Below, one piece after another: positions 36,923 to 50,970 of a stretch of DNA of 51,249 nucleotides. A program made the position numbers and the translations under genes. Origin of the DNA: Primorskyibacter aestuariivivens (GTDB lineage: Bacteria; Pseudomonadota; Alphaproteobacteria; Rhodobacterales; Rhodobacteraceae); NCBI RefSeq assembly GCF_028023675.1, contig NZ_JAQIOZ010000027.1, positions 1 through 51,249 of the forward strand. Direction: 5' to 3'. The notes beneath the pieces were generated by a model, which had not been told where the DNA came from, searched no databases, and saw only the letters and a list, made by a program, of their open reading frames with translations. Positions within the stretch are counted from its first letter, which is position 1, and the number at the start of each line of letters is the position of its first letter.

Positions 36923-36948
36923 CGGCCGGATCAGACCGGCGGGCCGTC
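36921..36948. terminator. Stem-loop at convergent stops
   Basis: GACGGCC and GGCCGTC form a 7-bp stem around a 14-base loop that itself contains CCGG/CCGG pairing potential, covering the stop codons of the AraC-type gene and the lyase-like gene. Confidence 0.35.
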
Positions 36949-37846
36949 AGTCCTCTGGCCGCATATTCATGTCTTCGCGCCAGCGGGGGTCGACATCCTC
37001 TCGGCGCGTACCGGTGCGGAATTCGTCGTAAAAGACTACGAAACGCGGCTTCGGCGTGCCCGGCTGGATGTTGTCCCAGCGCTTGGTATAGCTGGCAAAT
37101 ATGCCCCGGCGATGCGTTGGCAACGCGTGGCCACGGTCGGGCAGACGCGCAACGAGCTGTCCGCGATAATCACATTTCAGCTGATCGTTGACCCAGATGC
37201 GCAGGTAGCCCGAGCCGTCATTGGCGAAATTCGTATTCACCACGATGTCCATCCAGTAGTCATGCGCCTCGACGATGGAAAACAGCCTGCAGATATGGCC
37301 GTCATTTTGCGCGTTGGACCAGCCATAGGCATCCGCCATGTCGGCCAGCTGCACCACGATATCCTGCGTCCGGTCGGTTGATCGCGTGCAGACCGCGGGG
37401 TCACAGCTGTTCCAGTCGCCTTCATCCCGGCCCATCTGGATGAAACGGAAAACAGGCGGCAGATCACCGGACAGCCGCCACTGGCCAAAGACCAGCCGCA
37501 GGTTCGTGTCACGCAGCGTTGGCCCGACCGTACCGTTATAAAAGCTCCAACCGTACCAGATATCCTCGCCGATGCGGGCGTCGACATAGCGGTCGCGCAG
37601 CCCGATTTCAGACCGGTAGCGCGGCGCGCCACAATCGGAGCCGCCGCAATCGCCGTCGCGCAATTCAAACCGCTCTGCACGTTTCCCGCGTCGGTTGGGT
37701 TCGCCCTGCACGGTGTAGCGGAAGGCGTGATCATGGGGGCTCAGGATGCGCTCATAGCCACGCTGCGGGCTGTCCGCCTGAGCCGTCAAAGGGGTCAGCC
37801 ACAGCGTAAGCGACAGGGCAAAGGCACGTGAGAAAAATGCGCGCAT
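36947..37846 (-). CDS. Secreted polysaccharide-lyase-like protein (PF14099-type fold)
   Basis: A 299-residue exported protein: signal peptide FALSLTLWLTPLTAQADS. The body has the pattern of the heparin-lyase-I/glucuronan-lyase (PL13/PL20, PF14099) jelly-roll family: RYRSEIGLRD, a W-x-GWSFYNGTV strand, LRLVFGQWRLSG with PPVFRF, WMDIVVNTNF with GYLRIWVNDQ, and FVVFYDEFRTGTRREDV at the C-terminus. Eliminative cleavage of a uronic-acid polymer is the expected activity but not proven. It is divergent from algD with a 313-bp shared upstream region, so it may trim or release the polymer made by that operon. Confidence 0.6.
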   Translation of the reverse strand: MRAFFSRAFALSLTLWLTPLTAQADSPQRGYERILSPHDHAFRYTVQGEPNRRGKRAERFELRDGDCGGSDCGAPRYRSEIGLRDRYVDARIGEDIWYGWSFYNGTVGPTLRDTNLRLVFGQWRLSGDLPPVFRFIQMGRDEGDWNSCDPAVCTRSTDRTQDIVVQLADMADAYGWSNAQNDGHICRLFSIVEAHDYWMDIVVNTNFANDGSGYLRIWVNDQLKCDYRGQLVARLPDRGHALPTHRRGIFASYTKRWDNIQPGTPKPRFVVFYDEFRTGTRREDVDPRWREDMNMRPED

Positions 37847-38159: not shown

Positions 38160-39479
38160 ATGGCAAGAATCAGTGTCTTCGGCATTGGCTACGTTGGCGT
38201 AGTCTCTGCCGCATGTTTGGCCAGGGACGGTCACGAAGTTATCGCCGTGGATGTCGATCCCGGCAAGATCGAAGCAATCAACAACGGGCTGTCGCCGATC
38301 GTCGAGAACGGTTTGGATGAGCTGATCGCAGATGTGGTCAAGGCCGGACGCCTCAGCGCAACCAGCGATGTGCAGCATGCCATCGACAATACTGACGTGT
38401 CCTTCATCGCCGTAGGCACGCCCAGCGCACCGGACGGCTCGGTCGGATTGAAATATGTCGAGATCGTTTGCCGCAATATCGGTGAGGCGCTGGCCAAAAA
38501 GGACGCCTATCACTCGGTTGTCATCCGCTCGACCATTGTGCCCGGCTCCTGCGAAGGCACCTGTATCCCGGTGCTGGAAGAGGCCAGCGGCAAGACCGCC
38601 GGCAAGGAATTCGGCGTCGGCTATTACCCGGAATTCCTGCGCGAAAGCACCGCGATCGAGGATTACTATGACCCCGGTCTAATCGTGTTCGGTTCCATGG
38701 ATGAAGGCACCTCAAGAATCCTGACCGAGATCAACGAGAACCTGCCCTGCGAAATCCACGTGGTCGATCTGCGCACTGCCGAGATGGTAAAATACACATC
38801 GAACACCTGGCGCGCGGTCAAGATCACCTTTGCCAACGAGATCGGCAATATCGCCAAGGCATCCGGCCTTGACGGTCAGACTGTGATGGAAATCCTGTGC
38901 TCCGACACGAAAGTGAATATTTCCAGCTACTTCATGCGTCCCGGTTTTGCCTTTGGCGGCTCCTGCCTGCCCAAGGATGTGCGCGCGCTGCGCCATCTGG
39001 CCAGTGAACAGGGCACGCCCGCCCATATGCTCAATGCGGTGCTGGACGCCAACGAGGCGCAGATCCGCCGCGCCGAAGAAATGGTTGAACGCACCGGTGC
39101 CAAGCGCGTGGGCTTTGTCGGTATCTCGTTCAAACCCGGGACGGATGATCTGCGCGAAAGCCCGCTGGCGGAACTCGCCGCGCGGCTGATCAGGAACGGC
39201 GTGCAGGTCGATATCTACGATCCCTACGTGTTTGAGGCTTATGCCAATGAAAACTCGACGGCAGGGCGCGGCAATGACGTGATCCCAGATCTCAAGGACC
39301 GGATGAACCCGGACCTGAACGCGCTCATCAATGACGCGGGTGCCATTCTTGTCGGCAATTTCTACCGTGACACGGTGGATACGCTGGAAGAGGCGGCCAA
39401 GACCCGGCCAGTGCTGGACCTGACCCGGATGAAGCGGGACAAGGTCTCGGACGGCACCTATGAAGGGATCTGTTGGTAG
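38160..39479 (+). CDS. algD: GDP-mannose 6-dehydrogenase
   Basis: A 439-residue nucleotide-sugar dehydrogenase (Pseudomonas AlgD has 436). N-terminal NAD motif RISVFGIGYVGVVSAACLAR; YYPEFLRESTAIEDYYDPG; and RPGFAFGGSCLPKDVRALRH with the catalytic Cys269, a form specific to GDP-mannose dehydrogenases rather than UDP-glucose enzymes (compare GYGGSCFPKD in ugd here). It makes GDP-mannuronate, the monomer donor for Alg8. The ATG at 38160 removes a non-homologous open leader. First gene of the alginate-like operon, as in Pseudomonas. Confidence 0.93.
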   Translation: MARISVFGIGYVGVVSAACLARDGHEVIAVDVDPGKIEAINNGLSPIVENGLDELIADVVKAGRLSATSDVQHAIDNTDVSFIAVGTPSAPDGSVGLKYVEIVCRNIGEALAKKDAYHSVVIRSTIVPGSCEGTCIPVLEEASGKTAGKEFGVGYYPEFLRESTAIEDYYDPGLIVFGSMDEGTSRILTEINENLPCEIHVVDLRTAEMVKYTSNTWRAVKITFANEIGNIAKASGLDGQTVMEILCSDTKVNISSYFMRPGFAFGGSCLPKDVRALRHLASEQGTPAHMLNAVLDANEAQIRRAEEMVERTGAKRVGFVGISFKPGTDDLRESPLAELAARLIRNGVQVDIYDPYVFEAYANENSTAGRGNDVIPDLKDRMNPDLNALINDAGAILVGNFYRDTVDTLEEAAKTRPVLDLTRMKRDKVSDGTYEGICW

Positions 39480-39493
39480 GACGGGACAGCGTA

Positions 39494-40972
39494 ATGTTGA
39501 TACTCACCCACCTGGCCTATTTCTCGATCGTTTTGTTGTTGATTTTTACCGTGCCGCAAACGGCTTTGGGTGAACTGCAACACGCCAAGAGCGCGATCTT
39601 CATCATGGGCTTCCTTGGGACGTGGCGCTACAGCTGGGCCGCGATCAACTTCACGCGTGCTGTCATCTTCCGCAGGATCGTGCACCCGACACGCAAACGC
39701 CGGGCACGCCGCCGCTTTGCCGAAGAAGGCCGCCGGTCGCATATGTATATGCTGGTGACCTCCTACATGGTGGAGCCCGAGGTCACCCTGCCCGTCTATC
39801 GCAGCGTGTTTCGCGCGGCCTCTCGTGCACGTGATGGGGCAACCATCGTGGCGTCAGTGGTGGATGGGGCAGATGAGCGGTTGATCCGCTCGATCTACGA
39901 ATCCCAACCCGAGGACATGAGCAGCGTTCACCTGATCATCGACCGGATCAAAGCCAACGGCAAACGCGACGCGCTGGCCAAGACCCTTCGCATCATCGGC
40001 AGCCACAGCCCGACCCACCGTGATATCCTTGTCTTTGTAGATGGCGACACCATGGTGCCGGAAGATATCTGGATCGAAAGCGCGCCGGTCTTTACCAGCC
40101 CCAAGGTGGGCGCGCTCACCACAGACGAAGCGGTCATCGTGGACAAGGACAATCTGTTCAAGGACTGGTTCGTCCTGCGCTTCAACCAGCGGCAAGTGAT
40201 GATGTGCTCCATGGGCCTGTCCAAGCGGGTGCTGACCCTGACGGGCCGGATGAGCGTATTTCGCGCCGATCTGGCCACACGACCCGATTTCATCAACGGG
40301 ATCGACGCCGACTTTCTGGATCACTGGCGGCTGGGCCGGGTGAACTTCCTGACCGGGGACGACAAATCGACATGGTACTGGTTGCTCAAGAACGGGTATG
40401 AGATGCAGTACCTACCTGATGTCCGCTCGGTCAGCTATGAAAGCCAGCCGCGCCCCGGCTTTTTCGACAGTTCCAAAACGCTTATGGTGCGCTGGTTCGG
40501 AAATATGATCCGCACGAATGGCCGCGCCTTGAGGCTGCCGCCGAAACGCATCGGCGGCTTTACCTGGTGGTCAATCCTCGACCAGCGGGTGTCGATGTGG
40601 ACGACGCTTGTCGGGCCGATCACTGTCGGTCTTGCCGCGTTGATGGTCTCCCCGGCCGTGATCCCGATCTACATCGCCTGGGTCATGACCACGCGCTACA
40701 TCTTCTGCGTGATCATCGCGCTGTTCCGGGGCGGCACATGGTTCCCGGTGACACACCCACCGATCCTGTATTTCTCACAAGTCGTGGGGGCCGCGCTCAA
40801 GACCTATGTGCTGTTCCGCATGGACAAGCAGAAATGGACCCGCCAGTCCACCGGCGGCAAGGGCGCGGTTGTTGCCTTTTCCGACAAGCTCAAATCCTAC
40901 GAATCCGCGGCACATCACGTGACCGCTTTGTTGTGGCTGACCATCGCCATTTTGTTTTTCACCAAGGTCTGA
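39494..40972 (+). CDS. alg8: Alg8-like polymannuronate glycosyltransferase
   Basis: A 492-residue membrane GT2 enzyme. Hydrophobic segments at the N-terminus (LAYFSIVLLLIFTVPQTAL) and C-terminus (ITVGLAALMVSPAVIPIYIA; ALLWLTIAILFFTK) flank a cytoplasmic catalytic domain with DGD at 183-185, LTGRMSVFRADL, GDDKSTWYWLLKNGYEM (288 on) and VRWFGNMIRTN. LGTWRYSWAAINFTRA and QKWTRQSTGGKGA are Alg8-type blocks. It polymerises GDP-mannuronate and secretes the chain across the inner membrane with Alg44. All expected catalytic aspartates are present. ATG at 39494, 14 bp after algD. Confidence 0.92.
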   Translation: MLILTHLAYFSIVLLLIFTVPQTALGELQHAKSAIFIMGFLGTWRYSWAAINFTRAVIFRRIVHPTRKRRARRRFAEEGRRSHMYMLVTSYMVEPEVTLPVYRSVFRAASRARDGATIVASVVDGADERLIRSIYESQPEDMSSVHLIIDRIKANGKRDALAKTLRIIGSHSPTHRDILVFVDGDTMVPEDIWIESAPVFTSPKVGALTTDEAVIVDKDNLFKDWFVLRFNQRQVMMCSMGLSKRVLTLTGRMSVFRADLATRPDFINGIDADFLDHWRLGRVNFLTGDDKSTWYWLLKNGYEMQYLPDVRSVSYESQPRPGFFDSSKTLMVRWFGNMIRTNGRALRLPPKRIGGFTWWSILDQRVSMWTTLVGPITVGLAALMVSPAVIPIYIAWVMTTRYIFCVIIALFRGGTWFPVTHPPILYFSQVVGAALKTYVLFRMDKQKWTRQSTGGKGAVVAFSDKLKSYESAAHHVTALLWLTIAILFFTKV

Positions 40973-40985
40973 CGGATGACATGCC

Positions 40986-42080
40986 ATGCTGGACAGAACA
41001 ATGACTGACCATTCGCAAACCGAACCGGACGAGCCCCCAAAGGTGCCTGAGGATTTCGGCTTTGATACCGAGCATCCGGTGCTGCCTGTGCCCTTCACGG
41101 CGCAGATCGGTGACGCAAAGTTCGAGGGCACGGGCCTGTCGGTCACGGCGGCCTATGTGGCACCACTGCAATCGGTTCCGGACGGCGTGGTCGGCGGGCG
41201 CACCGCCGTGCGGCTGCGTTTTGATTTCGGCGGGTTCACCATCACGCTCTTTCCCGAAGCGTTGATCAAGCGCGGTGATGGCGACGAGCTGACGCTGCAA
41301 TTCCTTGATCCGACCGGACCGCACCTGCCACAGCTGCGCTATATCCTGAATACCTATATCGCCGGGGATGTTGTAAGCCTTGGGTCGATGATGGCCTATA
41401 CCGGCCCAACCAAACCCAAGGATCCCAAGGGCAAAGGTGGCGGCGGCGCTGACACGATGCGCCGCATCAAGAGCATCGGCGTTGTCATCGTTTCCTGCAT
41501 CCTGATCTATTTCGCGCTCAGCGCGCTGGTGACCCGCTACACGACAAGCTTTGAGTTGCGCCCGGTCTTCATCACCCGCGCGGGCAATGAGATGCGCGCC
41601 ACAAGCGGCGGGCAGATTACCTATCTCAATCCCGAAGCCCGCAGCGGCGAGGTGCTTTATTCCATCAGCGCCACAACCGGTGACGTGCTGAATTTCCAGT
41701 CCCCCTGTGATTGTGACGTCTCCGTGACCGATGGGGTATTTGAAGGCGCAACTGTTCTTCCCGGGGACCCAATTCTGACACTTTTTGACGGCAGCGTGAA
41801 TGTCAGTGTGCAGACCCAAATGAGTACCGAAGGACTGGCCAAAGCCATGAGCGGTGAACGGATACATCTGGTGATGAGTGATGGTCGGGAAATCCCGGCG
41901 CGTCTCGTTCTGACATCGGCAACCAATGCGGCAGCCGAGCGCGGCGATCTGTTCCTGCCGGTCAAGCTTGTTCCGGCAGAGGGTGCTTTGACCCCTGTCG
42001 ATATCGGTAAATCTGCACGGGTGCGTCTGACCCAGGTTCTGTTTGGGCGTGGCGCAGGTCAAGACAGGATTGATGAGTGA
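40986..42080 (+). CDS. alg44: Alg44-like polymerase co-subunit with degenerate PilZ domain
   Basis: A 364-residue protein in Alg44 architecture: N-terminal PilZ-like domain (about 28-135, ending LPQLRYILNTYIAGDVVSLG, which matches Alg44), one membrane helix (about 162-182) and a periplasmic membrane-fusion-protein-like domain with SPCDCDVSVTDGVFEGATVL. In Pseudomonas Alg44 the PilZ domain binds dimeric c-di-GMP through RxxxR (R17, R21) and DxSxxG (D44, S46). Here the region before the first strand has no arginine pair (EHPVLPVPF) and the second motif reads GLSVTAA (G50, S52). The c-di-GMP switch is therefore probably absent. A second ATG at 41001 is an alternative start. Confidence 0.88.
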   Translation: MLDRTMTDHSQTEPDEPPKVPEDFGFDTEHPVLPVPFTAQIGDAKFEGTGLSVTAAYVAPLQSVPDGVVGGRTAVRLRFDFGGFTITLFPEALIKRGDGDELTLQFLDPTGPHLPQLRYILNTYIAGDVVSLGSMMAYTGPTKPKDPKGKGGGGADTMRRIKSIGVVIVSCILIYFALSALVTRYTTSFELRPVFITRAGNEMRATSGGQITYLNPEARSGEVLYSISATTGDVLNFQSPCDCDVSVTDGVFEGATVLPGDPILTLFDGSVNVSVQTQMSTEGLAKAMSGERIHLVMSDGREIPARLVLTSATNAAAERGDLFLPVKLVPAEGALTPVDIGKSARVRLTQVLFGRGAGQDRIDE

Positions 42081-43483
42081 TGAAGAAGATCTACCCCCTG
42101 ATCATCTGCGGCGGCAACGGAACCCGGCTTTGGCCGATTTCGCGCACCCATAGCCCCAAGCAATTCCAGAAAGTCGGCGACGCGGAATCCCTGACCTTTT
42201 TCCAATCCGCGGTCGAACGACACCGCGAAACCGGTTTTGAATCGCCTGTCATCGTGTCCGCCGCGCGGCACGCGCGCACGGTGCATCGGCAATTGCGCGA
42301 AATCGGGGCCAAGGCCGATGTGCTTCTGGAGCCGATGGGGCGTAACACCGGACCGGCGGTCCTGGCCTCTGCATTGCGCCTCCATGCAAAAGACCCCGAC
42401 GCGCTCATGTTGGTGGTGCCTGCAGACCATGTCATCGACGGCGACATCAACGCCTCGATCAAGGCCGTTCAGGCCGGGGCGGAAGCCGGGCTTATCATCA
42501 CCTTCGGGATCAAGCCGCGCTACGCGGAAACCGGGTTTGGGTATATCACCGATGGCGGGCCGATCATCGAACATCCGGGCCTGCGCGAGGTGGAGCGTTT
42601 TGTCGAAAAGCCCCCCACCCGCAAAGCGCGGTTGCTGGTGGAAAGCGAGATCGCCTATTGGGCGTCCGGCATCAGCCTGTTCAGGGCCGCCACGATCATC
42701 GAGGAATACCGCAAGTTCGATCCCGAAACCGTCGCCCATGTCGAAAAAGCGCTGGCGACAGCCAAAATGACCAAGGAAGGTCTTGTCCTGAACGGCGAGC
42801 AATTCGCGCTTGCGGATGCGTCGCCCACCGAAAGCACGGTGTTCGAACGCACGCGCCGCATTGCACTGGCCCCGCTGGATATCGAATGGAGCGACGTGGG
42901 CAGCTGGACTGCGATGTACGGCATTTCCAGCGCCAACCCGCAGGGTAACGTGCTTCAGGGCGATGTGATCGCCGTGGAAAGCAAGAATTGCATGGTGCGG
43001 TCAGAGACGCGGCTCGTGACCTGCGTGGGGCTGGAAGACATCATCGTCGTAGACACACCCGACGCGCTGCTGGTGACCAAGGTGGGGCATTGCCAAAGCG
43101 TCAAGAAGGTGGCCGAACACCTGAAAAAGACCGAGCGCGTCGAGGCCGAGAAGCATCAGGGCAGCGAATTCGAATGGGGCTCGATCAAGCAGCTTGTGGC
43201 CAAAGAGCACATGACGCTCTGCTCGGTGACAATCAAACCCGGTGCATCCATGAGTATTGACCCGATCCCGGGCCGCGAAGCGATCATGTCATCGGGCGAG
43301 CTTTTGCTGACCAGCGGCTCCGTCCAGACCCGGCTGTCCGAGGGTGAGCGCCATGACATCGACGCCCAGACACGGAGCACCCTGTCCAATCCCGGACCGC
43401 TGCCCGCTGAGGTTCTGATCATGACCATTGCTCTGACGACCAAACCTCAGGACGTCCTTCCCATCCCGCGCTATGCGTCGTGA
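42080..43483 (+). CDS. algA: AlgA-like mannose-1-phosphate guanylyltransferase with degenerate isomerase domain
   Basis: A 467-residue protein. The N-terminal nucleotidyltransferase is intact: GGNGTRLWPISRTHSPKQF (11-29), VVPADHVI, ETGFGYI and FVEKP (174-178), giving GDP-mannose from mannose-1-phosphate. Bifunctional AlgA ends with a type II phosphomannose-isomerase cupin whose zinc site is a QMHHHRAEHW-like motif; at the equivalent place (389-408) this protein has GASMSIDPIPGREAIMSSGE, with no histidines. The isomerase step must come from elsewhere. ATG at 42080 overlaps the alg44 stop (TGATG). In Pseudomonas algA is last; here it is fourth. Confidence 0.9.
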   Translation: MKKIYPLIICGGNGTRLWPISRTHSPKQFQKVGDAESLTFFQSAVERHRETGFESPVIVSAARHARTVHRQLREIGAKADVLLEPMGRNTGPAVLASALRLHAKDPDALMLVVPADHVIDGDINASIKAVQAGAEAGLIITFGIKPRYAETGFGYITDGGPIIEHPGLREVERFVEKPPTRKARLLVESEIAYWASGISLFRAATIIEEYRKFDPETVAHVEKALATAKMTKEGLVLNGEQFALADASPTESTVFERTRRIALAPLDIEWSDVGSWTAMYGISSANPQGNVLQGDVIAVESKNCMVRSETRLVTCVGLEDIIVVDTPDALLVTKVGHCQSVKKVAEHLKKTERVEAEKHQGSEFEWGSIKQLVAKEHMTLCSVTIKPGASMSIDPIPGREAIMSSGELLLTSGSVQTRLSEGERHDIDAQTRSTLSNPGPLPAEVLIMTIALTTKPQDVLPIPRYAS

Positions 43484-44966
43484 ACGGGCATATCTCCTGA
43501 GACGGTGGGCCCTTGGGCTGGTCACGGGTCTGGTCTGCGTGACCGTGGCGCACGCCGCGCCCGACAGCCCCGGTCAGATCAAGCGCGCGGTGGTCAAGGC
43601 ATTTGCCGCCTCGGTCGCGGAAAACGACAGCTTGTCCGCCAGCGCCCTGCTGCGCGCCTTTGATCTTGGCGGAACCGCACAGCGCCCCGCCCTGCCCCCG
43701 ATTGCCGCGCCGCAGGGCGCGCAAACGCCGCAATTCGAACGCTTCGACATGCGGTTGGTGCTGGGCATGCTGGCGCAGGCCTTTGGCTACAAGGACAACA
43801 CCAATGTCATTGACGCCCAGCGCGGCGACACCAAGCGCGCGCTGCTGATCCGGGACGGGGCCGCGCGCCTGTCCGACCTGCCCGACAGCCACGTCACCCG
43901 CAACGGCGCGACCACCACCCTGCACGCGCCGCTTGTGCTATGGAATAAGGCGGAACTGTATATCGGACCGGGCGAAACGCTGGTACTGGATGGCGAGGGC
44001 GGTGCCTTTATCCTTAACCTCGGACGGCTTTCGGTCGACGGGGCGCATATCGCCTCCAATCGCCTGCCCAATCCGGGCAACGCGGATTTCAACCCGTTCA
44101 TCACGACGACCGGCGCTGGTGTGATCCGCGCCGCCAATTCCCGGTTCAGCGATCTGGGATTCGGCGGCACCATCAAGTTTTCCGGGCTCTCCATCGCGCG
44201 CAACGCGCTGGAGCGGCCCAAGGATCGCTCTTACATCATCGATAGCCATCTGGACGGGCTGGAATCGCTTATACTGCATGCCGCGGATGGCACCGTCATT
44301 GCAGGCAACCGCATCGACACGCCGGGCAAGGCCGCGCTTCTGGTACTGCGCAGCCGGGCTGCCGAGATCCTGGACAATGTGATCTCGGGCGAAATGAACA
44401 CCAATGCCATCCGCGTGGTTGATGGGTCGGTCGGAACACGGGTCGAGGGCAATGCTATTCTTGGCGGCGATCGGGCCGGCATCCTGATCAAGGGCGCAAG
44501 CAACAACGCCATCGTGCGCAACAACATCGTCTGGGCCCGAGATGGGGGCGGTATCAAGCTGGATTCCATCCGCTGCGGGCGTGTGACTGGCAACATCGTC
44601 ATCGACAACCGCCAGAAAGGGATCGAGATCCGCCGCTCGCGCGCGGCGATCCTGTCCGGCAATCTTCTGGCATCAAACAAGAGCGCGGGCATCTGGATCT
44701 CGGGCCAGCCCGCCGAAGCCATCACGCGGGTCGAAGACAATATCCTTGATGCGAACGGCTCTGGCGTGGCGACCGCCACCGCCGAGGCGATTGTGTTCGA
44801 GGGCAACGACTTTTCGCACCAGTTCCCGCAATTCCTTGCCGGTGATCTGGTGGCTCAGGCACGCTACGTTGCCGCGGATATGACAGGCGAGACGCCCATC
44901 GCGCTCAGCGCCTCCGGGCCGGTGTCGGTCTCGGGCCTGCCCTTTGATTGCGGCGGCGGGGGATAG
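43473..44966 (+). CDS. algG: AlgG-like periplasmic beta-helix protein lacking the DPHD epimerase motif
   Basis: A 497-residue exported protein: signal peptide WALGLVTGLVCVTVAHAAP, a mixed N-terminal part, and from about residue 150 right-handed beta-helix (CASH) repeats such as GNAILGGDRAGILIKGASNN and GNIVIDNRQKGIEIRRSRAA, which align with the C-terminal repeats of mannuronan C5-epimerase AlgG. Pseudomonas AlgG uses a DPHD motif with His319 as base; the aligned stretch here (about 286-300) is KAALLVLRSRAAEIL, without D, P or H. Epimerase activity is thus doubtful; a scaffold or polymer-guiding role is possible. Overlaps algA by 11 bp. Confidence 0.8.
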   Translation: MRRERAYLLRRWALGLVTGLVCVTVAHAAPDSPGQIKRAVVKAFAASVAENDSLSASALLRAFDLGGTAQRPALPPIAAPQGAQTPQFERFDMRLVLGMLAQAFGYKDNTNVIDAQRGDTKRALLIRDGAARLSDLPDSHVTRNGATTTLHAPLVLWNKAELYIGPGETLVLDGEGGAFILNLGRLSVDGAHIASNRLPNPGNADFNPFITTTGAGVIRAANSRFSDLGFGGTIKFSGLSIARNALERPKDRSYIIDSHLDGLESLILHAADGTVIAGNRIDTPGKAALLVLRSRAAEILDNVISGEMNTNAIRVVDGSVGTRVEGNAILGGDRAGILIKGASNNAIVRNNIVWARDGGGIKLDSIRCGRVTGNIVIDNRQKGIEIRRSRAAILSGNLLASNKSAGIWISGQPAEAITRVEDNILDANGSGVATATAEAIVFEGNDFSHQFPQFLAGDLVAQARYVAADMTGETPIALSASGPVSVSGLPFDCGGGG

Positions 44967-44969
44967 CGC

Positions 44970-45731
44970 ATGATCGGGGGCTGGCAAAACAGTTTGAGTA
45001 TCATCGCCGCCGTTCTGATTCTGGTCAGTGCGGCGCATGCACAGGCGCGCGGCCCCCTGCCCGGCAGCGCGGAGTCGCGCAAAATCTCGGTCGTGGTGGA
45101 TCGGGGCATCACCCATACCAATCAACTCCCGACCTCACTGCGACCGCTGCGCAAAGCCATGGTGGGCGGTGCGGCCATGTCCGACGCGGATTTGCGCACA
45201 CTGGCGGAGCGTGGTGACGGTCTGGCCGCGCTGCGGCTGACCAAGCGGCTGAAGTCGGATGGGTTGGCCGAGAACGCAGTGGACATCGCCTTTTATGCCA
45301 GTATCGCCGCCGGTGCCGGGCGCGTGTCGACGCTGGATGAAATGATCGAAGCGCTTTATCTTCTGGCCCCGGAGCAAATGCCGCGAGAAAGGCTGCGCCC
45401 CGTTATTGGCGTCCTCTATGCCCATGCCTGGGCCGGCAATACGCGCGCACTCGGCGCGGTCATCGACCTCAACGGGCGCGACCAGCTTTTCGGCGAAATG
45501 TCCGAGAAAACCCGGAACCGGCTGCTGGATATGGGACGCAAGCTGGGCACCGGGCAAATCGAACTGCGGCTTGCCATGAAGGAATTGGCCGAGAACTCCG
45601 GGGATGCGGCGACGCGCGAGCGTGTCATCGGCTATCTGATCCGGGCGGAGCGCATGGGCGATCTCGCCGTGCAGGCAATCGCCCAAAACCTCCGCCGTAC
45701 TTTGGGCGATGTGCCCAATGCACAATATTGA
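44970..45731 (+). CDS. Secreted alpha-helical protein of the alginate-like operon
   Basis: A 253-residue protein with signal peptide SLSIIAAVLILVSAAHAQA. The mature part is almost entirely helical with repeat-like segments (LRTLAERGDGLAALRLTKRL; AFYASIAAGAGRVSTLDEMI; YAHAWAGNTRALGAVIDLNG), suggestive of SEL1/TPR-like solenoid repeats. I do not recognise a named family. It lies between algG and algX, starts 3 bp after the algG stop and overlaps the open frame of algX, so it is surely translated with them. It may be a periplasmic scaffold partner, a role filled by AlgK in Pseudomonas. Confidence 0.75.
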   Translation: MIGGWQNSLSIIAAVLILVSAAHAQARGPLPGSAESRKISVVVDRGITHTNQLPTSLRPLRKAMVGGAAMSDADLRTLAERGDGLAALRLTKRLKSDGLAENAVDIAFYASIAAGAGRVSTLDEMIEALYLLAPEQMPRERLRPVIGVLYAHAWAGNTRALGAVIDLNGRDQLFGEMSEKTRNRLLDMGRKLGTGQIELRLAMKELAENSGDAATRERVIGYLIRAERMGDLAVQAIAQNLRRTLGDVPNAQY

Positions 45732-45738
45732 GAGCCGG

Positions 45739-47040
45739 ATGATGCGGGCGATTTGGAAAACGGTCTCGAACGCGCTGCTTGCGGCAGGCATCTCTTTGAC
45801 CGCCGGGGCGGCCATGGCATCGGTGCATGGGTGCCGGGGGATTGAAGACGGCCATTTCTGGTCCAGCATCGAGGGGCGCGACGGCGTGTTTTTCCGGGTG
45901 GACCCCGGGCTACACGCCATCCACCCGATGACCGATGCCACGATTGCCGAACTGGCACGGCTGTCGCGGGCCCTGAAAGCGGCCGGCACGACTCTGGTCC
46001 TCGCGCCTCTGCCGACCAAGGCGCTGGCCATGCCGCGATCGCTTGACCTGGACACCGAACTGTTCGGCTACGACACAGAGATTGCCACGACGGTCTATCT
46101 TGATGCGATTGGGCGATTGCGCGGGGCCGGGATTACGACGGCGGATGCGCTGCGTCCCCTGATCCGGTCGGAGCAGCCCCCCTATTTCAAGACCGACTAC
46201 CGGATGAATGCCCGGGGGGCCGCAATCACGGCCGCGACCATCGGGCAGGAAATCCGCAGCGGCGCAGGCTATGCGCAACAGGCCCGCCACAGCTTTACCA
46301 CCATCCGCACCGGTCAGGCCGACATCCCCTCCGCGATGCGTATTGCCTTGCAGCAGCATTGCGAAGCCACGCTTCCCAAAGCAACAACGGAGATTTTCGA
46401 AACCCGTATCGAGACGCGCGCCGCGCAAGGGCAAAGCGGTGTGATCGCACTCGTCGGAACCGAGTTTTCCGACCTCCCGGAGGCAAATTTCGCGGGGTTC
46501 CTGGCCCAGGAAACTGGATTTGACGTGATCCAGTATTCGCTGCCCGGCGGCGGGGCCTTCGGCGCGATCTCTACGTACCTGACGTCAGAGGAATTCGCGA
46601 CGGGGCGTCCGGATTTTCTGGTCTGGGAATTCCCGATTTATGACAATCCGGGCGGCAACGGCCTGCAGCCGCTGGAAGAGTTGATTGCCGCGGCGTTCAA
46701 TTCCTGCCGGGACGCGCGCCCGTTGGAGCTTGCCGACCCGGAAACGCAGCCCGGGGTTGCCACTGCCGATCTGAGCGCGCTTGCCACGCCCATGGGGCAC
46801 AGCCTGCTGTTGGAGACCGGTGGTGCACCGGCACGGACCGCACGTTTCGCATTTGACAAGGGCGATGGCATCATTCGTACAAAGATCATCGCGCGGCACC
46901 CGGAACAATTGCCCACGGGCCGCTTCTTTGTGCCGTTGTCCGGGCTCTGGCCAGACGGCGCTGACAAGGTGGACATCACGCTGGACGTGGCATTTGGCGA
47001 TGCGCCCAGCCTTTCGGTTTGCAGCATGGGAGACAACTGA
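45739..47040 (+). CDS. algX: AlgX/AlgJ-like SGNH-fold protein with catalytic residues replaced
   Basis: A 433-residue exported protein, signal peptide LLAAGISLTAGAAMAS. It aligns with the AlgX/AlgJ acetyltransferase domain: VLAPLPTKALAMPRSLD, PPYFKTDYRMNARGAAITA, VIALVGTEFSDLPEANFAGFL and SLPGGGAFGAISTYL. In AlgX the triad is Asp174/His176 in a DTHW motif and Ser269 in a GTSYS-type motif. Here DTHW reads DYRM (D153, R155 at the His) and GTS reads GTE (E242 at the Ser). O-acetyl transfer by the known mechanism is therefore unlikely. The C-terminal part (about 335-433) may keep the polymer-binding module. I start at the ATG pair 45739/45742; earlier in-frame ATGs lie in the preceding gene. Confidence 0.82.
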   Translation: MMRAIWKTVSNALLAAGISLTAGAAMASVHGCRGIEDGHFWSSIEGRDGVFFRVDPGLHAIHPMTDATIAELARLSRALKAAGTTLVLAPLPTKALAMPRSLDLDTELFGYDTEIATTVYLDAIGRLRGAGITTADALRPLIRSEQPPYFKTDYRMNARGAAITAATIGQEIRSGAGYAQQARHSFTTIRTGQADIPSAMRIALQQHCEATLPKATTEIFETRIETRAAQGQSGVIALVGTEFSDLPEANFAGFLAQETGFDVIQYSLPGGGAFGAISTYLTSEEFATGRPDFLVWEFPIYDNPGGNGLQPLEELIAAAFNSCRDARPLELADPETQPGVATADLSALATPMGHSLLLETGGAPARTARFAFDKGDGIIRTKIIARHPEQLPTGRFFVPLSGLWPDGADKVDITLDVAFGDAPSLSVCSMGDN

Positions 47041-49751
47041 TGCGCAGTCTTTTGCTCCGCCTCGCCGCCACCCTGCCAGTGGCTCTGGGCCTGGGCCAGA
47101 TCGCCGGGGCGACCACGCTGGACTATGCCTTTTTGCCGCCTGCGGTCGAACAGCAGGACTTGTGCGGCGGCCCGCGCAACGCAAAACCCGACGACCTGAG
47201 CACCGGGCAACGCCAGGACCGGCTGACCGACAAGGAACGCATCCGGTTCCTCAACAACGACATCCGCCGCTATCAGACCGAGAACCCGTCACGCCATTTC
47301 AGATTTGTCACAGCCCTGATCGACCGTTTGTCATCGCTGGATGAAAACTTCGACAGCAATGACGCGCGCCTTGCCAAGATTGGTCTTTACCTCGATGCCG
47401 GGCGGTTTGCGGCCTTGCAAGAGGCCGGGCTGGTCGATCAACTGGTGGCACAGCGCGACGACCTGAACTACGCCCAACAAATGCGTGTCGCGCAGTTTCT
47501 GCTCAGCGGGATCGGCACGGCGCAGAACATCGACCTGGCGCATGAGATCATCCGCGAAGCAGGGTTTGCGGGCAACGCGGACGCGCTGCTTTTTCTGGCG
47601 CGCAAAAGCCTGGATCAGACACCCGTAGAAGGCTGGGATGCCCCTGTCGATCTGACCGTGACAATGGCGTTTGGCGGGCTGCTTGGTCAAATGGATGGCG
47701 CGGTTTGCCGCCGCGCCATGCGCATCGCCGAGGAATACCTGTCTGGCGGATTGGTCAGCCGGAACGAGGATATTGCGCTGGCGTGGTTCCGCTTTGCCGC
47801 TGATCTGGGACATCCAGAGGCCGCGTGGCGGGTGGTCGAACATTACCTGACCGCCGCGCCGCAGGATCGTGACCCACATGAATTGCAGCGCTATCTGGAA
47901 TGGGCCGTGGATCGCGGGATCACGCTCACCGACGCCGCATTGGCACAGCTGAAGCCCGGCACTGTGATGAATGCCAATGAGCTTCGCGCGCTGTTGGGTC
48001 CCAACGTGCCGGACCGGCCATTGGGGACACATCCGCCCATGTCGCGGCTTGTCCAGCTTTCGGTGAATATCGACAGTCTCGAGGCAAGCGAAGGCGGCCC
48101 GTACCTGAGCTATCTCCGTGAAATCAGCCAGCTTGACGGTGCCCCCGGTGCGGTCTTCACCGATCTGGCCAAGGAGATTTTCGTCCGGCGCGGTCGCTGG
48201 GCCGGTGAGGCCGAAGCGATGCCGTTTCTCGTTGAGGCCGCACGGCGCGACGATCCGGAAGGCATGCGCATTCTGGCCGAGCGGCTCATCCGGCAGCGCC
48301 GTGACCCGGTCATGCTGAACCGCGCAGCCGATCTCCTGATGGATGCGGGCACCCGTCTGGGCGATGCTCAGGCGCTGGCCGATCTGGACAAGCTGTTCCG
48401 CTGTCAGGCCCCGGATGCCCCGCGCCTGCAAGAGGCCGATCACTGGGCGCGTGCTTACAAGGCATCGGGCCATCAGTCTGTCCAAATCGGCGCAAGCGAT
48501 CTGGTCGCGCTGGACCGCACGCGCGATCCCTGGACGCTGGCCGAACTTCAGACACAGGCCTTGCAACGCCGCCCGGGTGCCCTTTCGGCCTTCTTGCTGC
48601 GTGTGCAGGACGATCCGATAGCCACGTTGCGCGCCAAACGGGCCTGGGCCGATCGGGCAGACAATTCCGACAAGACGATGGAAGAGTTTGCCAAGCTGGT
48701 TTTCGAGACGAACCGGTCCCCCGCCGAACGCCGCGCCGCTGTCGAATTCTTTCGTCGTGTCTATGTGAACAATGGCGTAACCACCGCGCTCGATCTGGCC
48801 ATCGCGCTGGTCGAGGATGCGGGGCGCAACCCGGACGTCGCGGATGAAATCCTGCGTCTTTTGCAGCAGGCCGGCAATCGGGGCGAAGGCGCTGCGATCA
48901 GGCTTTTGGCACGGCTGACAGGTTCGGAAGCTGAGACTTATCGCAGCTTTGCCGATATTATCGAGGCGCGCGGAGATTTCCTGGCCAAGATGTTCGCCCT
49001 GCCCCATGTGCCCCCGGAAAAGCAGGACAGCTATTTTGATCGGGCCGTTGCCCTGATGGCCTGCACCACTAAGGACGTGGCCGAACTGGGCGAAGCCCGC
49101 GCCATTCTGGACCAGCGGGACAAGGCCTTTCACTGGCGCAAGGTCGGCTTGAGCCTCGAAGGCGGTCATGTGCTGGCCAAGCTGCGCCTGTCGGACCGCC
49201 AGATGGCGGATTATCGTGCGCCCGAGCCTCCCGCGACAGAGGTTCTGGTGAAACGCGCACGCGAAGCGGGTGGCGCGGCAGAACAGATCCAGCTGTTTCG
49301 GCTGACAGCCAATCCCGAACTCGCAAGCTATGACCCCGATGCCGCCGCCAGGCATTTCGCGGAGATTGTCGCCATTGCCGATGTGAAGACGCTAAACTGG
49401 GCGCTGGATCACCTGACCACCGCAGATCCGCAGTTTCGCGAAGCATTGCAGACCCATCTTGACCTTGTAGCGCTTGCCCAACGCAGCGCCGAAGCGGGCA
49501 TTCCGGCGGGTATGGAACTCTATGCGGGGATCTTGATGCAGCGCAATGATCTGCGATCATCGCTTGAGTGGCTGCGCAGGGCTGCAGAGGCCGGGCGCGT
49601 ATCGGCAATGGCCGATCTTGGGCTTGCGCTGGCCATGGCCAAGGGGACCGACAGGGACCTGAATTCTGCCGCCACCTGGCTCGACAAGGCTGCACGCGGC
49701 GGGCATGGCCGTGCCGCACATCTGTTGAAATTGCTTGATCTGGAGGAATGA
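47040..49751 (+). CDS. Large SEL1/TPR-repeat periplasmic protein, possible AlgK counterpart
   Basis: A 903-residue exported protein with signal peptide SLLLRLAATLPVALGLGQIAG. The mature chain is a long helical solenoid; SEL1-type repeats are clear near 230-265 (YLSGGLVSRNEDIALAWFRF, AADLGHPEAAWRVVEHY) and at the C-terminus (YAGILMQRNDLRSSLEWLRR, GLALAMAKGTDRDLNSAATW, LDKAARGGHGRAAHLLKLL). AlgK of Pseudomonas, an SLR lipoprotein of about 450 residues, holds the periplasmic complex to the porin AlgE. This protein is twice as long and has no lipobox. The ATG at 47040 overlaps the algX stop by one base. Confidence 0.8.
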   Translation: MRSLLLRLAATLPVALGLGQIAGATTLDYAFLPPAVEQQDLCGGPRNAKPDDLSTGQRQDRLTDKERIRFLNNDIRRYQTENPSRHFRFVTALIDRLSSLDENFDSNDARLAKIGLYLDAGRFAALQEAGLVDQLVAQRDDLNYAQQMRVAQFLLSGIGTAQNIDLAHEIIREAGFAGNADALLFLARKSLDQTPVEGWDAPVDLTVTMAFGGLLGQMDGAVCRRAMRIAEEYLSGGLVSRNEDIALAWFRFAADLGHPEAAWRVVEHYLTAAPQDRDPHELQRYLEWAVDRGITLTDAALAQLKPGTVMNANELRALLGPNVPDRPLGTHPPMSRLVQLSVNIDSLEASEGGPYLSYLREISQLDGAPGAVFTDLAKEIFVRRGRWAGEAEAMPFLVEAARRDDPEGMRILAERLIRQRRDPVMLNRAADLLMDAGTRLGDAQALADLDKLFRCQAPDAPRLQEADHWARAYKASGHQSVQIGASDLVALDRTRDPWTLAELQTQALQRRPGALSAFLLRVQDDPIATLRAKRAWADRADNSDKTMEEFAKLVFETNRSPAERRAAVEFFRRVYVNNGVTTALDLAIALVEDAGRNPDVADEILRLLQQAGNRGEGAAIRLLARLTGSEAETYRSFADIIEARGDFLAKMFALPHVPPEKQDSYFDRAVALMACTTKDVAELGEARAILDQRDKAFHWRKVGLSLEGGHVLAKLRLSDRQMADYRAPEPPATEVLVKRAREAGGAAEQIQLFRLTANPELASYDPDAAARHFAEIVAIADVKTLNWALDHLTTADPQFREALQTHLDLVALAQRSAEAGIPAGMELYAGILMQRNDLRSSLEWLRRAAEAGRVSAMADLGLALAMAKGTDRDLNSAATWLDKAARGGHGRAAHLLKLLDLEE

Positions 49752-50767
49752 TGAAACGCAGTGTCGCCATGACCTGCCTGACCGTTTTTGTCCTTGGCCT
49801 GACGGCAGAACGCGCCGTCGCGTTCGAATGTCCCGCCACCCCTGAACCGGTCCTGACGATGGAATATGACAGCCGGTACGAGGAAGATGACGACACCCGG
49901 TCCGAGATCGACGAGGACGCCAATGACGCGGTCAATGCCTCTCAGAAACCGGTGGATGACTTCATCCGTTTGCTGGCCGACAGCGCAAACCGTATCTTTG
50001 ACGAAGGCGCAGATCAAGGTGCCATCGCAGATTGCGTGGTCGCGCAAGTTGCGGAATGGGCTCGGCGCGATGCCCTGCTCGACCTGCGCACCGACACCGT
50101 CCGCCTGACATTCGGTTCTCGGTTGGCTGGGATATCGCTGGCATTGCGGCAGGTGGTCGGCCATGGCGGCACATCCGACGATTGGCAGGCGATCCGCAGC
50201 TGGCTCAGGACCTTGAGCACCGCACAGCTGGAGTTCTGGGAGCAGGAGGCCACATCGGGCGCCAAGAGAGGCAATCTGCGCGCCTGGGCCGCACTTGGCA
50301 TCGCGGCCGCCGCTGACCTTCTGGACGACCCGGTGTTGCACGGGTGGTCTGCCTGGTCCACGCGCTATGTCTTGTGCTCGGCCAACCCCGATGGCAGCCT
50401 ACCTCAGGAAATGCGCCGCGGCCGTCTCGCGCTGCACTATCAGTTGCACGCGGTGGCCCCGCTTGTGGTGACAACACGGCTTCTGGCAGATCGTGGCTAC
50501 AGCTTGCAAGATGACTGTGAAGCGGCCCTGATGCGGGTCGTGACGTTCACGTTAGCGGACGTGGAGACAGGTGAGCGGACACAGGACATCACCGGCGAAA
50601 CGCAAACTTTTTTCGACGGTTCGGCAGAGATTTCCGCCTATCACCTGGCCTGGCTGGAGGCCTTTATTTCCCTTGTCCCGGCAGCGCCCGAAGCGCAGGA
50701 AAAAGCGGCGCAGTACCGCCCTCTTTCAAGCTCGAAACTCGGCGGAGAGCAAACCCACCTTTGGTGA
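49751..50767 (+). CDS. algL: AlgL-like PL5 alginate lyase homologue with catalytic His replaced
   Basis: A 338-residue exported protein (signal peptide CLTVFVLGLTAERAVAF). It aligns along its length with PL5 AlgL: CPATPEPVLTMEYDSRYE, CVVAQVAEWARRDALL, GSLPQEMRRGRLALHYQLHA, and SSSKLGGEQTHLW at the end. In PL5 enzymes the active site has Asn-His and, 54 residues after the His, Tyr with Arg seven before it (H202/R249/Y256). Here N175 is kept, the His is Leu176, and R223 and Y230 are at the expected spacing. The Lys66 equivalent is Arg42. Lyase activity is probably impaired, so it may only bind polymer. GGAGG precedes the second ATG, chosen as start. Confidence 0.85.
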   Translation: MKRSVAMTCLTVFVLGLTAERAVAFECPATPEPVLTMEYDSRYEEDDDTRSEIDEDANDAVNASQKPVDDFIRLLADSANRIFDEGADQGAIADCVVAQVAEWARRDALLDLRTDTVRLTFGSRLAGISLALRQVVGHGGTSDDWQAIRSWLRTLSTAQLEFWEQEATSGAKRGNLRAWAALGIAAAADLLDDPVLHGWSAWSTRYVLCSANPDGSLPQEMRRGRLALHYQLHAVAPLVVTTRLLADRGYSLQDDCEAALMRVVTFTLADVETGERTQDITGETQTFFDGSAEISAYHLAWLEAFISLVPAAPEAQEKAAQYRPLSSSKLGGEQTHLW

Positions 50768-50895: not shown

Positions 50896-50970
50896 GCCCG
50901 GGTAGCTCAGGGGTAGAGCAGTGGATTGAAAATCCTCGTGTCGGTGGTTCGATTCCGCCCCCGGGCACCA
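50896..50970 (+). tRNA. tRNA-Phe (anticodon GAA)
   Basis: Acceptor stem GCCCGGG/CCCGGGC, D stem GCTC/GAGC, anticodon loop TTGAAAA with GAA, T arm GGTGG-TTCGATT-CCGCC and encoded CCA. The anticodon stem GTGGA/TCCTC has one T-T mismatch. Confidence 0.95.

What the first reader, a model, noticed from the sequence alone, without database searches (positions are those of the whole stretch)
38160..50767. Alginate-type operon with an intact polymer-making core but multiple lost active or regulatory sites
AlgD and Alg8 keep their catalytic residues, whereas five co-encoded proteins lack key residues of their Pseudomonas counterparts: Alg44 (c-di-GMP arginines), AlgA (isomerase zinc histidines), AlgG (DPHD), AlgX (Ser and His of the triad) and AlgL (catalytic His). 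All frames are open, long and mostly overlapping, which argues for selection rather than decay. The operon may make an unmodified or differently modified mannuronate polymer with the former enzymes kept as scaffold or transport parts. I know of no described roseobacter system like this.
Basis: partly seen in the sequence, partly recalled or inferred. Interest (0 to 1): 0.88.

Follow-up and report, generated by a model that had tools for sequence, protein, structure and literature searches.

The report
Alginate operon stripped of polymer modification
Many marine roseobacter-type bacteria carry an alginate-type polymer operon whose modifying enzymes have lost active-site residues but are still kept by selection, which suggests that they make a bare, unmodified mannuronate polymer and use the former enzymes as transport parts.

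Summary
A tightly packed operon (algD-8-44-A-G-orf253-X-K-like-L, 38160-50767) keeps the dehydrogenase and polymerase cores, while Alg44, AlgA, AlgG, AlgX and AlgL lack the named residues. A survey splits these losses into two layers. Layer 1 is shared by two sister groups of Rhodobacteraceae operons: no c-di-GMP RxxxR in Alg44, no zinc site in the AlgA isomerase domain, no DPHD in AlgG, mostly no AlgE gene, and a remodelled AlgL. Layer 2 marks the window's group (clade A, 17 genera sampled): AlgI, AlgJ and AlgF are gone and the AlgX Ser/His pair is lost in 17 of 17 and 39 of 39 readable loci; the sister group keeps AlgI and the AlgX triad in 12 of 12 and 17 of 17. The AlgX changes are patterned (His to Arg, Ser mostly to Glu/Asp) and under purifying selection, weaker than in the sister group. 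Pseudomonas work fits: AlgI/J/F are dispensable for secretion, AlgX is not. Prediction: natural unacetylated, unepimerised mannuronan, exported without AlgE. No polymer has been analysed.

The parts
36947..37846 (-). Divergent polysaccharide lyase-like gene (PF14099), associated with clade A
   Evidence: Pfam PF14099 E 5e-17; weak PDB match to glucuronan lyase A, E 0.004; upstream of algD in 13 of 17 clade A loci (same strand in L047) and 0 of 12 clade B loci
38160..39479 (+). AlgD, GDP-mannose 6-dehydrogenase
   Evidence: PDB 1mfz best match E 5e-124
39473..40972 (+). Alg8-type mannuronan synthase (GT2)
   Evidence: PF13641 E 1e-26; motifs shared with canonical Alg8
40986..42080 (+). Alg44: PilZ-fold domain without c-di-GMP RxxxR, a long helix (probably transmembrane), and a membrane-fusion-protein-like part
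   Evidence: AlphaFold model pLDDT 84.5, pTM 0.49; Foldseek to Alg44 PilZ 4rt1 E 3.4e-4, TMt 0.78; RxxxR absent
42077..43483 (+). AlgA: intact guanylyltransferase domain, degenerate isomerase cupin
   Evidence: PF00483 E 2e-41, PF01050 only E 0.0014; histidine site in none of 30 readable A/B/window rows
43473..44966 (+). AlgG-like beta-helix without DPHD
   Evidence: NF038177 45 bits against cut-off 700; DPHD in 0 of 56 rows of the named set
44970..45731 (+). orf253: all-helical Sel1/TPR-like protein, probably periplasmic
   Evidence: AlphaFold pLDDT 92.4; several Foldseek tops are Sel1 proteins but the best E is only 0.06
45709..47040 (+). AlgX with D163 kept, R165 for His176 and E252 for Ser269
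   Evidence: PF16822 E 2e-39; PDB 4knc E 5e-26; residues
47019..49751 (+). 910-aa Sel1/TPR protein in AlgK's place
   Evidence: PF08238 E 5e-14; the 14 PDB matches are nearly all named as Sel1/TPR repeat proteins, solved AlgK not among them
49748..50767 (+). AlgL (PL5-type) with remodelled active site
   Evidence: PF05426 E 3e-20; 4ozw/4ozv E 5e-21 and 8e-21; residues

Best explanation
The operon is a working synthase-dependent mannuronan system in which the modification branch was lost while the parts that carry the polymer were kept. AlgA (guanylyltransferase half) and AlgD supply GDP-mannuronate; Alg8/Alg44 polymerise it and pass it through the inner membrane, without the usual c-di-GMP contact. 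AlgG, AlgX, orf253 and the Sel1/TPR protein form the periplasmic conduit. AlgG no longer epimerises. In clade A, AlgX no longer acetylates because its acetyl supply (AlgI, AlgJ, AlgF) is gone and its Ser/His pair became mostly Glu/Arg, which could form a salt bridge that closes the old active site while the guiding role stays. AlgL, with Tyr and Arg kept and an Arg next to the old His position, probably still clears stray polymer; the PF14099 lyase may help or cut released polymer. Product: unacetylated, unepimerised mannuronan. Shown by sequence: gene content, residue losses, a tree that needs one origin of clade A, purifying selection. Inferred: polymer identity, scaffold role, salt bridge, AlgL activity.
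For: AlgI goes with an intact AlgX triad: 12 of 12 readable clade B rows against 0 of 17 clade A rows in the family sample (AlgI/J/F presence checked), and 17 of 17 against 0 of 39 in named genomes. Of those 39, 37 have Arg for His and 32 have Glu or Asp for Ser. No MBOAT gene anywhere in 12 of 13 clade-A-only genomes, one in each of 9 clade-B-only genomes. Clade A is one clade on the Alg8 tree, SH-aLRT 99. omega in the two closest clade A pairs is 0.13 and 0.14 for AlgX, 0.14 and 0.26 for AlgG, 0.13 and 0.20 for AlgL. Three other alphaproteobacterial loci (L148, L149, L151) and four from family code f194 keep AlgG DPHD, so the loss looks derived. In G000 the only match to the AlgG model is the operon gene, 44 bits against 964 and 879 in two canonical genomes. 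Pseudomonas: deleting AlgI, J or F does not affect secretion, deleting AlgX does (PMC9734138, Discussion read); strains with mutated AlgG make mannuronan, and mutants lacking AlgK, AlgX or AlgG make oligomers instead of alginate (PMC4444821, passages).
Against: No polymer data exist. Related copies share ancestry, so the counts are not independent events: clade A needs only one origin. AlgX omega is about 2-3 times higher in A than in B close pairs (0.13-0.14 against 0.04-0.08), and in more distant clade A pairs around the window (dS about 0.8-1.4) it rises to 0.28 and 0.43 for AlgX, 0.28 and 0.43 for AlgG, 0.38 and 0.30 for AlgL, which fits partly relaxed constraint. The porin is missing: PF13372 is absent in 23 of 24 A/B genomes, so export is unexplained; it matches in 8 of 9 outgroup genomes, but the miss (G864) keeps AlgG DPHD, so absence of the model match is not proof of a changed system. 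The AlgK identity of the 910-aa protein rests on position and repeats only. Seven of 39 AlgX rows lack an acid at the Ser position, so a Glu-Arg bridge cannot be general; one of them (L132) even has a Ser in that column, though without the GTS context.
Confidence: 0.72

Rival explanations
1. AlgX and/or AlgG gained a different chemistry, or the polymer is another uronan, so the changed residues mark new enzymes rather than scaffolds.
For: The AlgX substitutions are patterned (Arg 37 of 39, acid 32 of 39); AlgL has four changes fixed together, or nearly, around a kept Tyr/Arg; the neighbouring PF14099 gene is nearest, weakly, to a glucuronan lyase.
Against: AlgD is clearly of the GDP-mannose type and Alg8 keeps motifs of canonical Alg8. 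AlgG positions at DPHD vary widely among relatives, unlike a new active site.
Confidence: 0.15
2. Modification is supplied in trans: another acetyltransferase or epimerase elsewhere in the genome acts on the polymer.
For: AlgA shows that trans compensation is possible here; two relatives have weak extra matches to the AlgG model (G316, G082).
Against: G000 has no MBOAT protein, no second PF16822 protein and no second match to the AlgG model. Acyltransferase-3 and other families were not searched.
Confidence: 0.08
3. The operon is decaying in this lineage and will be lost.
For: Faster evolution of the periplasmic proteins, and higher omega for AlgX in A than in B.
Against: All nine genes in the same order in 17 of 17 sampled clade A loci, omega well under 1 in every pair that gave a value, and the same kind of AlgX substitution in most loci.
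Confidence: 0.03

Closest known systems
Pseudomonas/Azotobacter alginate operon (algD-8-44-K-E-G-X-L-I-J-F-A; order recalled)
   Same: AlgD, Alg8, Alg44 fold, AlgA transferase half, AlgG-like helix, AlgX fold, AlgL, a TPR/Sel1 protein
   Different: No AlgE, I, J, F; Alg44 without RxxxR; AlgG without DPHD; AlgX without Ser/His; AlgL with H202L, S203R; different gene order; extra orf253
Clade B operons of Rhodobacteraceae and one Ciceribacter strain (found here)
   Same: Same order of the shared genes and same layer-1 losses (Ciceribacter keeps AlgL His202), orf253 in most, no PF13372 match in the 9 clade-B-only and 2 mixed genomes tested
   Different: Keep AlgI, AlgJ, AlgF and an intact AlgX triad; 9 of 12 have a conserved upstream regulator-like gene instead of the lyase
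Atypical alginate operons with lost subsets of loci (PMC7112194, passages read)
   Same: Loss of algKE or of parts of the modification set in some environmental bacteria
   Different: The passages read report gene losses, not retained proteins with lost active sites, and do not describe this group; their figure S5 was not seen
Laboratory mannuronan-producing AlgG mutants (PMC4444821, passages)
   Same: Mutated AlgG, mannuronan product
   Different: Made by mutation; the review states that a mannuronan-producing organism had not been identified in nature (2015)

Membership tests
Alginate synthase-dependent operon | GDP-mannose dehydrogenase and Alg8-type synthase | tested here: met
Alginate synthase-dependent operon | Alg44 with PilZ domain and membrane-fusion-type periplasmic part | tested here: met
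   predicted fold
Alginate synthase-dependent operon | c-di-GMP-binding RxxxR in Alg44 | tested here: not met
   among 33 A/B/window rows two stray matches, by eye in the N-terminal linker (L044, L046)
Alginate synthase-dependent operon | AlgE outer membrane porin | tested here: not met
   no PF13372 match in G000; absent in 23 of 24 A/B genomes; control matched in 8 of 9 outgroup genomes
Alginate synthase-dependent operon | AlgK TPR lipoprotein | tested here: inconclusive
   Sel1 repeats in the right place; no lipobox seen in the N-terminus by eye
Alginate synthase-dependent operon | Catalytic AlgG (DPHD) | tested here: not met
Alginate synthase-dependent operon | Acetylation set AlgI, AlgJ, AlgF and AlgX triad | tested here: not met
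Alginate synthase-dependent operon | Product is alginate or mannuronan | not testable with these tools
   needs polymer chemistry
PL5 alginate lyase | Tyr acid/base and Arg (Y256, R249) | tested here: met
   all 18 clade A/window rows
PL5 alginate lyase | His202 | tested here: not met
   Ciceribacter L138 keeps it

The most novel reading that the evidence does not exclude
A whole lineage of marine bacteria makes natural pure mannuronan (no guluronate, no acetyl), exports it without an AlgE-type porin and without c-di-GMP binding by Alg44, and has turned AlgX's Ser/His active site into a mostly Glu/Arg structural or polymer-guiding site: evolution itself separated AlgX's transport role from its catalytic role.
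Probability: 0.42. Interest if true: 0.77.

Novelty: new variant of a known kind. Interest (0 to 1): 0.62.

Why it matters
It makes two open points testable. First, a 2015 review says that a mannuronan-producing organism had not been identified in nature (PMC4444821); named clade A strains (for example Marinovum algicola FF3 and Phaeobacter sp. J2-8) are candidates. Second, why alginate needs AlgX and AlgG even when their chemistry is not needed: here are natural systems that kept the proteins and lost the chemistry, beside a sister group that kept the acetylation set, and two genomes with both. It also points to an unknown outer membrane exporter and to an AlgL active site that differs from the solved P. 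aeruginosa one.

Tried and rejected
Decay was considered and rejected (frames, order, omega). Shifted catalytic residues: the alignments show none at the homologous positions in AlgX, AlgG or Alg44, apart from one out-of-context Ser in L132. A conserved flanking gene was sought in loci with up to 10 kb downstream of algL and a few kb upstream of algD; among the largest groups listed, in clade A only the PF14099 gene was widely conserved, no porin. CtrA-like sites upstream of algD: 2 of 18 clade A/window and 1 of 12 clade B stretches matched a loose recalled pattern, not pursued. A whole-genome search for DPHD codons was too short to be informative. Poly_export (PF02563) genes exist in all 10 genomes tested; none lies in the operon, though in G304 one lies about 12 kb away on the same contig. 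A type I isomerase (PF01238) was found in 0 of 10 genomes, but a strong match to the isomerase cupin PF01050 outside the operon was found in 9 of 10 and its histidine site seen in the 8 loci read. The exact tests ignore shared ancestry and are not used as evidence of many events. Rows dropped before counts: three clade B loci without readable AlgX (L027, L059, L062; contig ends; L027 and L059 are too short to show AlgI and are placed by the tree); of the 62 named loci, six without AlgX (L088, L101, L122, L140, L141, L142). The scan used AlgL patterns, one of them containing NLRAW, so its AlgL counts are biased; the Alg8-based sample is not. In one search the pairs with dS above about 1.4 were not used for omega. 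The species behind family code f194 are unnamed; I take them for Pseudomonadaceae.

Full report
What is there. Nine open frames run from 38160 to 50767 with gaps of at most 13 bp and overlaps of at most 23 bp: algD, alg8, alg44, algA, algG, orf253, algX, a 910-aa Sel1/TPR gene, algL. A tRNA-Phe follows at 50896-50970. The window is a whole contig of 51249 bases. Upstream and divergent lies a PF14099 lyase-like gene. Family searches recognise AlgD, AlgA, AlgX and AlgL, give Alg8 as a GT2 synthase and AlgG as a weak match; they do not recognise Alg44 or orf253. Alg44 was identified by predicted fold: its N-terminal domain matches the solved Alg44 PilZ domain (4rt1, E 3.4e-4, TM 0.78 by target) and the rest matches membrane-fusion proteins. 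orf253 is a confident all-helical model with weak similarity to Sel1 proteins.

Residues. AlgX keeps the Asp but has Arg for His176 and Glu for Ser269. AlgG has no DPHD. Alg44 has EHP where canonical copies have RQHAR or RQYAR. The AlgA cupin has lost its histidines, but a second AlgA/ManC with an intact HHHR...HW site lies on contig C13. AlgL has L for H202, but keeps N201, W205, R249 and Y256, with K66R, S203R and Y259H. In Pseudomonas AlgL, Y256F, R249A and R249E were inactive and impaired growth, while H202A was inactive in vitro and yet behaved like wild type in cells (PMC8829089, passages).

Survey. An Alg8 search of 394 genomes of the family gave 60 with a match; 31 of these hold close copies (55-86% identity beside the window itself) and the other 29 only a 27-39% relative of another kind. 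The close copies fall into two groups. Clade A (window and 17 loci, 18 genomes in 17 genera) has the window's gene set, with no AlgI or AlgF and only the weak AlgJ similarity expected of AlgX itself. Clade B (15 loci) has in addition AlgI, AlgJ and AlgF: AlgI in 13 of 15 and all three in 12 of 15, the rest being cut by contig ends; Pfam confirms MBOAT, PF16822 and AlgF in the examples scanned. The AlgX triad is intact in 12 of 12 readable B loci and the Ser/His pair lost in 17 of 17 A loci. A second, named sample from an AlgL scan of 62 loci repeats this: 17 of 17 loci with AlgI have an intact triad, 39 of 39 without AlgI do not. In those 39 the His is gone in all (Arg in 37) and Ser is Glu or Asp in 32; one (L132) has a Ser in the aligned column without the GTS motif. 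Genome-wide, MBOAT is absent in 12 of 13 clade-A-only genomes; the exception, G072, has one about 12 kb from a second, more distant synthase, on another contig than its clade A operon. The two genomes with both operons and the nine with B only each have one.

Shared losses. AlgG DPHD is found in 0 of 56 AlgG rows of the named set, while three other alphaproteobacterial loci and four loci of family code f194 keep it; one more distant outgroup copy (L163) does not. Alg44 RxxxR and the AlgA cupin site are missing in both clades. AlgL H202 is L in 17 of 17 A loci plus the window and in 2 of 2 readable B loci; in the named set the Ciceribacter locus (L138) has NHRAW, that is, Arg203 with His still present, which looks like an intermediate. 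AlgE (PF13372) is absent in 23 of 24 A/B genomes (G279 has two matches on other contigs) but matched in 8 of 9 outgroup genomes; the miss, G864, keeps AlgG DPHD.

History and selection. On an Alg8 tree of 45 rows clade A is one side of a branch (SH-aLRT 99) beside clade B, whose own unity is weak (56). One loss event in A is therefore enough; two genomes (G183, G346) hold both types. In the closest pairs omega is 0.03-0.26 over the genes measured; AlgX is 0.13 and 0.14 in A against 0.04 and 0.08 in B. In pairs at dS about 0.8-1.4 around the window (L081/L083, L083/window) omega is higher, 0.28 and 0.43 for AlgX and for AlgG, still under 1. So the protein is kept, with weaker constraint than an active acetyltransferase.

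How it probably works. In Pseudomonas, AlgI, AlgJ and AlgF can be removed without stopping secretion, but AlgX cannot, and AlgX binds AlgK (PMC9734138, Discussion). Mutants lacking AlgK, AlgX or AlgG make oligomers instead of alginate, and mutated AlgG can give mannuronan (PMC4444821, passages). Clade A is what one would expect if evolution removed the dispensable acetylation branch together with the AlgX chemistry. The Glu/Arg pair at the old active site may form a salt bridge; this is inferred, as no model of AlgX was made. With AlgG inactive and no second match to the AlgG model in the genome, the expected product is plain mannuronan.

Novelty. Nine literature searches were run. None of the papers they listed (lists were capped, for example 15 of 820 and 12 of 309) looks by title and abstract like a description of this operon in Rhodobacteraceae; passages of two roseobacter-related papers (PMC6224355, PMC7892980) did not describe it, and the first says that alginate production had not been observed in Phaeobacter inhibens 2.10. 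PMC7112194 reports atypical alginate operons with lost loci (passages). The 2015 review states that a mannuronan-producing organism had not been identified in nature. I file this as a new variant of the alginate-type synthase systems, not as a canonical alginate operon, because several defining features were tested and not met.

Limits. Only sequence and predicted folds; the porin, the lyase's substrate and the polymer are unknown; counts in related genomes are not independent.

Noticed in passing
window 36947-37846 (-): PF14099 lyase-like gene, upstream of algD in 13 of 17 clade A loci and no clade B locus, with many fixed Cys/Trp/Arg positions; substrate unknown.
   Followed up: partly
L032-L047, L049, just upstream of algD: The word GAGGCAG lies a few bases before the algD start in 15 of 18 clade A/window sequences; perhaps an extended ribosome site. 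The window itself has the variant GAGAGCAG.
   Followed up: no
L050:3711-4484, L051:3749-4507, L056:2953-3750: Clade B operons have a conserved co-directional gene upstream (9 of 12) whose C-terminus reads by eye like a LuxR/NarL-type regulator; 0 of 17 in clade A.
   Followed up: partly
G183 (L033, L053) and G346 (L034, L057): Two genomes carry both a clade A and a clade B operon.
   Followed up: partly
L138:10001-10993: A Ciceribacter strain has a clade B type operon with AlgL NHRAW, an apparent intermediate between NHSYW and NLRAW.
   Followed up: partly
L101:10001-11008: Shimia sp. R9_2 has an NLRAW-type AlgL with none of the other operon genes found by tblastn in its 21 kb locus.
   Followed up: no
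window 44970-45731: orf253 is found in most A and B operons read but not by tblastn in L124, L126, L128, L131 and L132.
   Followed up: no
G146, G222, G035 and others: A second, 27-39% identical GT2 synthase family occurs in the same bacterial family, with an AlgD-like gene nearby in L064-L069.
   Followed up: no
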